Assembly: GCF_019598945.1 (NCBI RefSeq)
Contig: NZ_CP080598.1
Location: 2,604,001 to 2,668,000, forward strand
Direction: 5' to 3'
DNA from: Sphaerospermopsis torques-reginae ITEP-024
GTDB lineage: Bacteria; Cyanobacteriota; Cyanobacteriia; Cyanobacteriales; Nostocaceae
Length of the DNA: 64,000 bases
Shown piece after piece: positions 44,325 through 48,347 of the stretch (its first letter is position 1; the number at the start of each line of letters is the position of its first letter). The translations under genes and the position numbers were made by a program. Below the pieces are notes generated by a model, which did no database searches, was not told where the DNA came from, and saw nothing but the letters and a program-made list of their open reading frames with translations.

Positions 44325-45341
44325 ATGAATGCACATCGAGGATCTGCTGTGCTGAGTTCTGCAACTTTGACAATGCACCCAGTCACCACAGGACTGACTG
44401 AAAATCACCGTCTGCGGCTGTTTTCTGGCTCTGCCAATTTACAATTATCCCAAGAAGTCGCTCGTTACCTGGGGATGGACTTGGGTCCAATGATTCGTAA
44501 AAGATTTGCGGATGGAGAACTGTATGTTCAAATCCAAGAATCTATTCGCGGTTGTGATGTCTATTTAATCCAGCCAACTTGCCAGCCAGTTAACGACCAT
44601 TTAATGGAATTACTGATCATGATTGATGCTTGTCGTCGCGCATCAGCACGGCAAATTACCGCAGTAATTCCCTATTATGGTTATGCCCGCGCTGACCGCA
44701 AAACCGCAGGACGAGAATCTATCACCGCTAAACTGGTTGCTAACCTGATTACTCAAGCTGGTGCTAGTCGTATTCTTGCAATGGATTTACACGCAGCACA
44801 AATACAGGGGTATTTTGATATACCTTTTGATCATGTTTACGGTTCACCCGTAATACTGGATTATATACAGAGTAAACAACTACATGATGTTGTAGTTGTT
44901 TCCCCTGATGTGGGCGGTGTTGCCAGAGCCAGAGCATTTGCCAAAAAATTGAATGATGCACCTCTGGCAATCATTGATAAACGCCGTCAAGCTCACAACG
45001 TCGCTGAGGTTTTGAACGTCATCGGCGATGTCAGAGGCAAAACGGCAATTTTAGTAGATGACATGATTGATACAGGTGGAACAATTACCGAAGGGGCGAA
45101 ATTACTCCGTCATGAAGGCGCTAGTCAAGTATATGCTTGTGCTACCCATGCAGTATTTTCACCGCCAGCGATTGAACGCTTATCAAGTGGCTTATTTGAG
45201 GAAGTGATAGTTACTAACACTATTCCTATTCCTGAAAGTAATCGTTTTCCTCAGTTAGTCACGCTGTCAGTTGCTAATTTACTTGGTGAGGCGATTTGGC
45301 GGATTCACGAAGATAGTTCATTAAGCAGCTTATTCCGTTAG
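44325..45341 (+). CDS. prs: Ribose-phosphate pyrophosphokinase
   Basis: 338 residues. LRLFSGSANLQLSQEVARYLG, KRFADGELYVQIQESIRG, the signature MDLHAAQIQGYFDIPFDHVYG, and the PRPP-binding loop AILVDDMIDTGGTITEGAKLL. It makes PRPP from ribose 5-phosphate and ATP. The first 15-20 residues are outside the conserved core, so a downstream start (ATGCACCCAGTC) is also possible. A terminator follows. Confidence 0.95.
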   Translation: MNAHRGSAVLSSATLTMHPVTTGLTENHRLRLFSGSANLQLSQEVARYLGMDLGPMIRKRFADGELYVQIQESIRGCDVYLIQPTCQPVNDHLMELLIMIDACRRASARQITAVIPYYGYARADRKTAGRESITAKLVANLITQAGASRILAMDLHAAQIQGYFDIPFDHVYGSPVILDYIQSKQLHDVVVVSPDVGGVARARAFAKKLNDAPLAIIDKRRQAHNVAEVLNVIGDVRGKTAILVDDMIDTGGTITEGAKLLRHEGASQVYACATHAVFSPPAIERLSSGLFEEVIVTNTIPIPESNRFPQLVTLSVANLLGEAIWRIHEDSSLSSLFR

Positions 45342-46202: not shown

Positions 46203-47270
46203 TCAATTAATCTTTCCTATCCGATCCGGTGGAAAAAATATTTTAGATGCTTTACCAATAATCAAATTCCGGGGTACAACTCCCCAGCATCTTCCATCAA
46301 AACTGTTCATGCGATTATCCCCTAATACTAAATATGAATCCGATGGTATGGTGACAGGTTTAGATAAATAGGGAGTTGATATACAAACATCAATTTCTGT
46401 ACGCTGGTTTGAGGCTAAATATTTATCTTCTGCTAATGGTTGATTGTTAATCAAAACTTTCCCATTTTTGAGTTCCACTTTTTCATTAGGTAGGGCTATT
46501 ATTCTTTTAATAAAAGCCTCTGTATATCCTTCTTTGATGAGTGATTCTGTTGGAGAAAACACTATGATATCACCACGTTGAGGAGGTTCAAAATGATATA
46601 TCAATTTATCAACTAAAATGCTATCAGCTTCCCAACGATTTAGTTTGCCATGTAATGTAGGTTCCATCGCTGCTGTAGGTATCCATCTTGCTTCTGCTAT
46701 GTATGTTCTCACAGAAAATGCCAAAGCGAAAGACAATATAATTGAAATTATTGGTCCTAAAGAAACTAAAAACGCTGTTTTTTTTGATGTTTCTCGCTGC
46801 ACTGGTGATAAGCTATATGCTAAATAAGAAATACCAGCATAAATTACTGGTAAAAGCACAGGGAGAAAACTGGAAACTATCAAGATAATGATAATTGCTA
46901 CAATTCCTAATAACCATTGACCAAGATAAAATTGACCTAATCCCCAAAATAGCTGTGAGAGAAACATTGCTAACCAAGGATCTTTATTTTGTTTTCTCAG
47001 TTCTTCAAATTCCTGGCTATTCTTACTTTTAGCACTAGCGTAAGCATCAAATAAATTCCAAAATCCAAAAATCACATTTAATAATAAACAAGCAACTGCA
47101 AATAATATATTTACTGTGGGACTGAGAACTAACCAAAGACTCAATATAAATAAGCTAATAGTTACTAATATGAATAAATATCCTTTTATCTGATATCCGG
47201 TATATATTTGTCCTATTCCGGGAAAGATTTTTGATAAATTAACTGCCAGCCAAGGTTCTTTATTAGACAT
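46203..47270 (-). CDS. Signal peptidase I-like protein with nucleophile Ser replaced by Ala
   Basis: 355 residues. Residues 1-185 contain about six hydrophobic segments (two repeats of KxPWLAxxLSxxFxGxGQxYxGxxxxG), an unusual N-terminal fusion. The S26 domain follows: RWIPTAAMEPTL (196-206) where active family members have a Ser right before the Met, here Ala201 (codon GCG, 46668-46670). The general base Lys255 (AFIKRIIALPNEKV) and GDNRMNSFDGRCWGVVP are intact. It therefore looks like a catalytically altered or dead paralogue. Single copy in the window. Confidence 0.85.
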   Translation of the reverse strand: MSNKEPWLAVNLSKIFPGIGQIYTGYQIKGYLFILVTISLFILSLWLVLSPTVNILFAVACLLLNVIFGFWNLFDAYASAKSKNSQEFEELRKQNKDPWLAMFLSQLFWGLGQFYLGQWLLGIVAIIIILIVSSFLPVLLPVIYAGISYLAYSLSPVQRETSKKTAFLVSLGPIISIILSFALAFSVRTYIAEARWIPTAAMEPTLHGKLNRWEADSILVDKLIYHFEPPQRGDIIVFSPTESLIKEGYTEAFIKRIIALPNEKVELKNGKVLINNQPLAEDKYLASNQRTEIDVCISTPYLSKPVTIPSDSYLVLGDNRMNSFDGRCWGVVPRNLIIGKASKIFFPPDRIGKIN

Positions 47271-47621: not shown

Positions 47622-47882
47622 ATGCCACAAACGCTTCTGAATGAAATTATTAACCAGCTAAATAGTTTAGAACAGGATGAACTACAACAGCTTAATCGGA
47701 TTATTCAAATATACCTGACTGACAAAGCACAAGCTGATCAAACCACAAAATTTTATCAAGCACTTTTAAATTCTGGTTTGGTGAAAGAAATTAAACAACC
47801 CACTCCCCAACCACAGGAAAGAACTCTCATTCAAGTACAGGGTAAACCTGTTTCTCAAACTATCATTGAGGAACGCGGCTAA
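47622..47882 (+). CDS. vapB: Putative VapB-type antitoxin
   Basis: 86 residues: N-terminal helices LNEIINQLNSLEQDELQQLNRIIQIYLTDK and a polar C-terminal tail ending SQTIIEERG. No full DNA-binding fold is obvious. Immediate neighbour of a PIN-domain toxin (stop at 47882, ATG at 47883), so the antitoxin role is inferred from position and size. Confidence 0.65.
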   Translation: MPQTLLNEIINQLNSLEQDELQQLNRIIQIYLTDKAQADQTTKFYQALLNSGLVKEIKQPTPQPQERTLIQVQGKPVSQTIIEERG

Positions 47883-48347
47883 ATGACAGTTTATTTCTTT
47901 GATAGTAGTGCTTTAGTTAAACGCTATGTTGCGGAAATAGGTTCAAGTTGGGTTGTGAGTTTGTGCAATCCTAATCTGAAAAATACTGTATTTATTGCTG
48001 CTATTACTGCTGTGGAAATTACTGCGGCAATTAGTAGACGTGCAAAGGGCGGCAATATCGCTCTCACAGATGCTAACACAGTATATTCCCAATTGAAAAA
48101 TGATATTCAATCGGAATATCAAGTAATTGAAATTACAGATACTATTATTAATTCAGCTATGACCTTGGCAGAAAAACACGGTTTGCGGGGTTATGACGCG
48201 GTTCAGTTAGCTGCGGCTAAAGCTGTTAACGATCTTTGCATAGCTAATAATTTGCATCCATTAACTTTTATATCTGCTGATCAAGAATTGAATAATGCCG
48301 CAGTCAACGAAGGTTTAGTTGTTGATAATCCCAATAACCACCCCTAA
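47883..48347 (+). CDS. vapC: PIN-domain toxin, VapC-like
   Basis: 154 residues. PIN acidic residues: FFDSSALVKRY (D6), AITAVEITAAISRR (E), YDAVQLAAA (Asp) and SADQELNNAA (Asp). VapC toxins cut tRNA or rRNA with a metal ion. Abuts the antitoxin gene. An upstream orphan antitoxin of a different pair lies 7 bp before vapB. Confidence 0.85.
   Translation: MTVYFFDSSALVKRYVAEIGSSWVVSLCNPNLKNTVFIAAITAVEITAAISRRAKGGNIALTDANTVYSQLKNDIQSEYQVIEITDTIINSAMTLAEKHGLRGYDAVQLAAAKAVNDLCIANNLHPLTFISADQELNNAAVNEGLVVDNPNNHP

What the first reader, a model, noticed from the sequence alone, without database searches (positions are those of the whole stretch)
46203..47270. Signal peptidase I-like protein with Ala in place of the nucleophile
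The catalytic Ser that precedes Met in active S26 enzymes is Ala201 (RWIPTAAMEPTL), while Lys255 and the GDNR box are intact, and a six-helix N-terminal region is fused. It could be a dead enzyme, a substrate-binding regulator or one using another residue (Thr199).
Basis: partly seen in the sequence, partly recalled or inferred. Interest (0 to 1): 0.6.

Follow-up and report, generated by a model that had tools for sequence, protein, structure and literature searches.

The report
Cyanobacterial signal peptidase lacking its blade
A membrane protein in a filamentous cyanobacterium is built like the enzyme that trims export signals off proteins but has lost the one residue that cuts, and its relatives have lost that cutting pair again and again while keeping nearly everything around it, which suggests a useful protein that grips without cutting.

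Summary
The 355-aa ORF (46203-47270, minus) has an S26 signal peptidase domain (Pfam 9e-40) with Ala201 (GCG) where the nucleophilic Ser belongs; Lys255 and GDNR are intact. It is no sequencing error: 20 of 45 distinct proteins of its clade, itself included, have Ala, with drifting codons.

The wider picture is stronger. In this "R-type" long form (tandem TM2-like repeats fused to S26), 30 of 45 distinct proteins lost Ser or Lys, against 0 of 64 in the sister "F-type" long form and 1 of 37 short S26 proteins examined. The tree needs at least 10 state changes, or 21 losses if never regained. Other hallmarks stay nearly invariant, and nine Ala-Ala pairs show purifying selection (dN/dS 0.11-0.29). 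The same genome has two S26 genes with both dyad residues.

Best reading: a maintained pseudo-signal-peptidase that binds export-signal or membrane segments without cutting, like S. pyogenes SipA but with only the nucleophile gone. Loss of catalysis is well supported but not assayed; clients are inferred. Thr199 as substitute is unlikely. New variant of a known kind.

The parts
46203..47270 (-). Long-form pseudo-signal-peptidase gene, 355 aa
   Evidence: ORF; full-length relatives at 49-66% identity in 19 other genomes of its family and 55-65% in named records
47196..47261 (-). First TM2-like repeat motif, residues 4-25 (KEPWLAVNLSKIFPGIGQIYTG)
   Evidence: Weak Pfam TM2/DUF5683 matches below cut-off; W7, G18, G20, Y23 each in 108 of 109 distinct long forms, the other row lacking this part
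46917..46985 (-). Second TM2-like repeat motif, residues 96-118 (KDPWLAMFLSQLFWGLGQFYLGQ)
   Evidence: 41% identical to the first repeat over 51 residues, E 7.6e-12; W99, G110, G112, Y115 in 109 of 109
46236..46748 (-). Peptidase S26 domain, residues 175-345
   Evidence: Pfam PF10502 E 9.3e-40; AF2 model of residues 165-355 pLDDT 78, matches SipA 4n31 (Z 15.3) and E. coli SPase I 1t7d (Z 14.2)
46674..46676 (-). Thr199 codon ACA, position of Ser88 of E. coli SPase I (that correspondence and its oxyanion role are recalled)
46668..46670 (-). Ala201 codon GCG at the nucleophile position
46506..46508 (-). Lys255 codon AAA, the general-base position
46311..46322 (-). GDNR box, residues 317-320
   Evidence: G317, D318, R320 (and S323, D325) each 20 of 20 in the complete Ala rows, N319 17 of 20
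44325..45341 (+). prs (ribose-phosphate pyrophosphokinase; name from sequence, recalled), flanking gene
   Evidence: Orthologues flank the long form in L149 and L154
48528..50318 (+). typA/bipA GTPase (name from sequence, recalled), flanking gene
   Evidence: Orthologues at 92-94% identity near the long form in L034, L035 (same protein as L151), L149, L154

Best explanation
It is a pseudo-signal-peptidase: a membrane protein with probably five spans whose extracytoplasmic S26 domain keeps the fold, the Lys pocket and probably the peptide cleft but cannot cut because the nucleophilic Ser is Ala. I infer that it works by holding signal peptides or similar membrane-adjacent segments of client proteins, like a natural Ser-to-Ala substrate trap, while the two S26 proteins of the same genome that keep both dyad residues do the cutting; the tandem N-terminal repeats would place it in the membrane or bind a partner. 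Shown here: loss of the nucleophile, conservation of the rest, purifying selection in Ala relatives, repeated loss of the dyad in the clade, intact paralogues. Inferred: lack of activity, client binding, identity of clients, sidedness.
For: Nucleophile is Ala in 20 of 45 distinct R-type long forms, and Ser or Lys is lost in 30 of 45, against 0 of 64 F-type (Fisher p 6e-16, not corrected for kinship). At least 10 state changes on a 56-row tree built without the two dyad columns; 15 on an earlier quick tree of the domain alone with 104 rows. Within the R-type clade the Ser position ranks 145th and Lys 114th of 355 in conservation, while R256, D216, D234, F238, E281, Y284, R320 are 45 of 45. Nine Ala-Ala pairs with dS 0.02-1 have dN/dS 0.108-0.285 overall and 0.10-0.30 in the S26 domain, in the range of 27 intact pairs (0.085-0.443). 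Own genome has two further S26 genes with Ser and Lys. The domain model matches SipA, which has an S26 fold and showed no peptidase activity, and E. coli SPase I (PMC4049620, abstract and section 8).
Against: The gene is dispensable: 20 of 217 genomes of the family have the long form at E 1e-60, the one other genome of its genus that was searched lacks it without a remnant in the slot, one relative is truncated, one is split by TGA and one broken by TAA. 15 of 45 R-type rows keep both Ser and Lys, some nested among Ala relatives. Raised dN/dS in some pairs: L037/L050 0.72 (both Lys-lost), L090/L110 0.55; L094/L101 0.49, but its intact comparison L094/L102 is 0.43. The query itself has no Ala partner with dS under 1; against L035 it gives 0.24 at dS 1.18 (before that script failed), and against Ser-bearing L043 0.28. 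No client, partner, expression or binding was tested.
Confidence: 0.6

Rival explanations
1. The conserved job lies in the tandem N-terminal membrane repeats; the S26 domain is a passive extracytoplasmic part whose catalytic residues drift because cutting was never the important function in this clade.
For: Repeat residues are nearly absolute in dead and intact forms alike (W7 108 of 109; W99, G110, G112, Y115 109 of 109), while Ser is lost in 23 of 45 and Lys in 9 of 45 R-type rows.
Against: In Ala-Ala pairs the S26 domain is about as constrained as the repeats and its non-dyad hallmarks are almost invariant; a passive domain should drift.
Confidence: 0.2
2. Ordinary decay: a redundant third signal peptidase that has lost activity and is on its way out.
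For: Patchy presence (20 of 217), a truncated copy (G095), a copy split by TGA (G024), a copy broken by TAA (L082), some pairs with raised dN/dS.
Against: Ala is shared by distant relatives with drifting synonymous codons (GCA 9, GCT 7, GCG 4), those frames are open, and dN/dS in nine Ala-Ala pairs is 0.11-0.29. Decay would not spare nearly every hallmark but two.
Confidence: 0.12
3. Still an active peptidase that uses another nucleophile, Thr/Ser199, with Lys255.
For: Lys255 is kept in 19 of 20 complete Ala rows, and all 20 have Ser or Thr at 199, against 10 of 15 intact R-type rows.
Against: Ser or Thr at 199 is the rule where the dyad is intact (36 of 37 short proteins; 64 of 64 F-type). 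Beyond the anchor no hydroxyl or thiol residue is peculiar to the Ala set (S162 lies before the anchor). Sister rows lose Lys and keep Ser, so loss of catalysis by either route is tolerated.
Confidence: 0.06

Closest known systems
Streptococcus pyogenes SipA (pilus assembly factor; PDB 4n31, 4k8w)
   Same: S26/SPase I fold with a peptide cleft and no catalytic nucleophile; top structural match of the domain model, about one Z unit above E. coli SPase I. No detectable peptidase activity (PMC4049620, abstract and section 8 read).
   Different: SipA has lost both dyad residues (Asp48, Gly85) and changed the Gly272 and Ser278 equivalents; here only the Ser is lost and the Lys pocket is intact. SipA sits in a pilus gene cluster; the immediate neighbours here are prs, an HD protein, a PIN protein and typA. 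SipA has no tandem N-terminal repeats (recalled).
Staphylococcus aureus SpsA
   Same: Inactive SPase I homologue beside an active, essential one (SpsB) (PMC12445088, two passages read).
   Different: Lacks two catalytic residues according to that review; no long N-terminal repeat region (recalled).
LepB-type signal peptidase I of the same genome (C1:1498503 and C1:239065)
   Same: Same S26 domain, 58% and 45% identity in the domain.
   Different: Both have Ser and Lys and a short N-terminal part.
F-type long-form S26 proteins of other cyanobacteria
   Same: Same architecture: two PWLA..LS..PGLGQ.Y repeats plus S26.
   Different: All 64 distinct F-type proteins examined keep Ser and Lys.
Cyanobacterial pseudo-orthocaspases
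   Same: Protease relatives with the catalytic dyad replaced, kept in cyanobacteria (PMC6426788, abstract only).
   Different: Unrelated protease family (caspase p20, His-Cys).

Membership tests
Peptidase S26 / signal peptidase I fold (PF10502, TIGR02227) | Sequence match over the curated cut-off | tested here: met
   136.8 bits vs 22.9; 126.7 vs 47
Peptidase S26 / signal peptidase I fold (PF10502, TIGR02227) | SPase I fold | tested here: met
   AF2 domain model pLDDT 78, pTM 0.74; Z 14.2 to E. coli SPase I 1t7d, 143 residues, rmsd 2.8
Active signal peptidase I | Ser nucleophile before Met (E. coli Ser90) | tested here: not met
   Ala201
Active signal peptidase I | Lys general base (E. coli Lys145) | tested here: met
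   Lys255
Active signal peptidase I | Cleaves signal peptides | not testable with these tools
   Needs a bench assay
SipA-like pseudo-signal-peptidase | S26 fold without a working dyad | tested here: met
   Nucleophile absent by sequence; fold match to 4n31, Z 15.3; activity not assayed
SipA-like pseudo-signal-peptidase | Both Ser and Lys replaced | tested here: not met
   Lys255 kept; SipA has Asp48 and Gly85
SipA-like pseudo-signal-peptidase | Encoded in a pilus gene cluster | tested here: not met
   Immediate neighbours are prs, an HD protein, a PIN-domain protein and typA
SipA-like pseudo-signal-peptidase | Needed for pilus assembly | not testable with these tools
   Needs a bench assay
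TM2 domain (PF05154) | Match over the curated cut-off | tested here: not met
   23.4 bits vs 27.9, two stretches; only TM2-like

The most novel reading that the evidence does not exclude
A clade of membrane-embedded signal peptidase relatives in filamentous cyanobacteria that repeatedly turns itself into a natural Ser-to-Ala substrate trap, holding export signals without cutting them, and that may even regain the nucleophile: the Ser of L038-L040 is coded AGT, whereas the other 83 Ser at this position among the 109 distinct long forms are TCN, and their sister L006 is Ala, GCT. AGT cannot come from TCN or GCN by one base change, so unless two bases changed at once the site passed through a residue other than Ser (Cys and Thr being possible steps from TCN).
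Probability: 0.3. Interest if true: 0.75.

Novelty: new variant of a known kind. Interest (0 to 1): 0.55.

Why it matters
A curated model names this protein signal peptidase I, so some cyanobacterial "signal peptidases" in the databases probably cannot cut. Dead proteases that still bind their clients can be regulators (SipA in pili, PMC4049620; iRhoms, PMC7618786, start of abstract seen). Here one clade offers many separate losses next to intact sisters, which makes it possible to test what an S26 domain does once cutting is no longer required.

Tried and rejected
Sequencing error: rejected, since the same Ala occurs in relatives from several genera.

Recent horizontal gain: not favoured, not excluded. 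Of 13 loci compared (two of them the same protein), typA lies near the gene in five loci (four genomes) and prs in two of these; the other eight loci showed neither within the stretch held. The same-genus genome G001 has other ORFs in that slot and no remnant.

NtcA-type promoter: GTATAATTCTGTAC lies 32-45 bases upstream of the start codon, but the window holds 15 such sites against 11.7 expected by chance, and of 27 upstream regions examined only the query and L005 have one, at different distances. Rejected as chance.

Active-site geometry: the full-length AF2 model is poor around the motif (pLDDT under 50 at 185-226). The domain model is better (pLDDT 78), but no coordinates were in the Python box, so no distances were measured.

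Conserved partner: none found in the 13 loci beyond typA and prs. A Ser/Thr kinase-like ORF recurs in three of them and was not followed.

S26 relatives on viral contigs: one search found none with LepB2; one search found seven distant S26 proteins, used only to deepen the domain alignment.

Literature: ten searches. No title in the listings was about dead signal peptidases in cyanobacteria, but three listings were cut (15 of 30, 12 of 13, 15 of 71) and the library holds only open-licence PMC papers.

Rows dropped: incomplete long forms L009 (TGA), L042, L070, L082 (TAA), L088 and L141 are not in the 109. Of these L082 has Val, L088 and L141 Ala at the nucleophile, and L009 Ser at the Lys position. 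One match (G283) and three short fragments were not fetched. The 37 short S26 proteins are mostly best matches of the query, not a random draw. One search stopped on an error and was redone. In one search the pair L002/L033 picked up a neighbouring ORF and is not used.

Full report
What is there. The ORF at 46203-47270 on the minus strand encodes 355 residues. Residues 175-345 match Pfam Peptidase_S26 (E 9.3e-40) and the protein matches the NCBIfam signal peptidase I equivalog (126.7 bits, cut-off 47). The motif ARWIPTAAMEPTL places Ala201 in the column of the nucleophilic Ser, and AFIKRII places Lys255 in the column of the general base. The codons are GCG and AAA. The genome is one 5.25-Mb contig in which the S26 model finds three genes; the other two have Ser and Lys.

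Architecture. Two repeats of the type K[ED]PWLA..LS..PG[IL]G.[IF]Y lie before the S26 domain, 41% identical over 51 residues. They resemble TM2 and DUF5683 below the cut-offs. Hydropathy shows hydrophobic stretches at 25-76 and 110-154, each long enough for two spans, and at 164-192, one span; the long helices of the low-confidence full-length model agree. I read this as five spans, with the last anchoring the S26 domain; sidedness is inferred.

Relatives. At E 1e-60 a full-length form was found in 20 of 217 genomes of the window's family (Nostocaceae by its named relatives, an inference). The N-terminal part alone matched 95 of 388 genomes of the order and 20 of 291 of the phylum. After fetching nearly all of these (G283 and three fragments were not fetched), 143 complete ORFs gave 109 distinct proteins including the query. 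They fall into two groups, which I label by residue 195: "R-type" (R, H, Q or Y; 45) and "F-type" (F, S or C; 64). The 45 R-type rows and 11 F-type rows chosen as outgroup are parted by a fully supported branch (100/100).

Repeated loss of the dyad. All 64 F-type proteins have Ser and Lys. Of the 45 R-type, 15 do; 19 have Ala+Lys, two Ser+Gln, two Ser+Ser, and one each Ala+Gln, Thr+Lys, Gly+Lys, Glu+Gln, Ser+Asp, Ser+His, Ser+Phe. Where the nucleophile is lost it is Ala in 20 of 23 rows. Two of the 15 "intact" rows are doubtful: L043, the query's sister in the tree (99/97), has Arg for the Gly of the GDNR box, a place where, according to PMC4049620, any side chain would clash with the Lys (section 8); L098 has lost the Met and much of the motif. 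Of 37 short S26 proteins examined, 36 have both residues; the exception, in L030, is one of a tandem pair. On the 56-row tree built without the two dyad columns at least 10 changes between intact and lost are needed; if neither residue is ever regained there are 21 separate losses. An earlier quick tree of the domain alone, 104 rows with short forms, needed 15. Deeper forks of the R-type clade are poorly resolved, so these numbers are rough. Fisher's test gives 6e-16 but ignores kinship.

Selection. Ala codons vary (GCA 9, GCT 7, GCG 4). Nine Ala-Ala pairs with dS between 0.02 and 1 have dN/dS 0.108-0.285, with 0.10-0.30 in the S26 domain; 27 intact pairs range from 0.085 to 0.443. LepB2 of three genomes whose long forms are Ala gives 0.10-0.19, against 0.11-0.23 for those long forms. 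Results the other way: the Lys-lost pair L037/L050 gives 0.72 at dS 0.05, L090/L110 0.55, and L094/L101 0.49, though its intact comparison L094/L102 is 0.43. The query has no Ala partner under dS 1; against L035 it gives 0.24 at dS 1.18 (printed before that script failed), and against Ser-bearing L043 0.28.

What is kept. In the 45 R-type proteins the Ser position ranks 145th and the Lys 114th of 355 in conservation, while D216, D234, F238, R256, E281, Y284, R320, W99, G110, G112 and Y115 are 45 of 45. In the 20 complete Ala rows Lys255 is kept in 19 and G317, S323 and D325 in 20. Over roughly 6.2 changes per site of all-Ala branches Lys255 was lost once, in L090, so it seems constrained, for structure or for function. 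In SipA, by contrast, the Lys and residues around it are also changed.

Structure. The domain model (pLDDT 78, pTM 0.74) matches SipA 4n31 (Z 15.3) and E. coli SPase I 1t7d (Z 14.2). A gap of about one Z unit does not rank one safely above the other.

Context. Of 13 loci compared, typA orthologues lie near the gene in five (four genomes, since L035 and L151 hold the same protein) and prs on the other side in two; the rest showed neither in the stretch held. With the same-genus genome G001, which has the slot but not the gene, this points to inheritance at one site in several genera with frequent loss, but other sites exist.

How it most likely works. I think it is a non-cutting signal peptidase relative that grips segments resembling signal peptides. 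Shown: the residue change, its spread, the kept hallmarks, purifying selection in Ala relatives and paralogues with an intact dyad. Inferred: absence of activity (a Ser-to-Ala change abolishes activity in E. coli LepB, recalled), client binding, and the role of the repeats. The main rival is that the repeats carry the function and the S26 domain is passive; the constraint on the S26 domain speaks against that but does not exclude it.

Known or new. Dead S26 proteins are known (SipA, SpsA). What I did not see described, within ten searches of an open-licence library, three of them with cut listings, is a cyanobacterial clade with tandem membrane repeats in which the dyad is lost many times and mostly by Ser to Ala. 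I call it a new variant of a known kind.

Noticed in passing
L038 4992-6059, L039 2445-3512, L040 4992-6059: The nucleophile Ser is coded AGT, unlike the other 83 Ser at this position among 109 distinct long forms (TCN), and their sister L006 is Ala: the residue may have been lost and regained.
   Followed up: partly
L030 2102-2734 (G030): Short S26 gene beside an intact LepB2 with Ala at the nucleophile; the two pair in the quick tree, so it looks like a tandem duplicate and a separate case of the same change.
   Followed up: partly
L147 2028-2408 (G095): Long form cut off after the second repeat; only the first 124 residues match, with no S26 remnant in the 5-kb locus.
   Followed up: partly
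L009 (G024), 1492-2571: Long form split by an in-frame TGA between the membrane repeats and the S26 domain; the S26 half has Ser at the Lys position.
   Followed up: no
window 47622-48347 (+): Small ORF plus PIN-domain ORF, perhaps a toxin-antitoxin pair; similar ORFs lie between typA and the slot in G001 and G102.
   Followed up: no
L189 947-1525 (viral contig): S26-like protein with Gly at the nucleophile position (SKGMEPT), while the similar L190 has Ser.
   Followed up: no
L055 and L056 1426-2577: GDNR box reads GDDR together with Asn-Ala-Met at the nucleophile motif.
   Followed up: no
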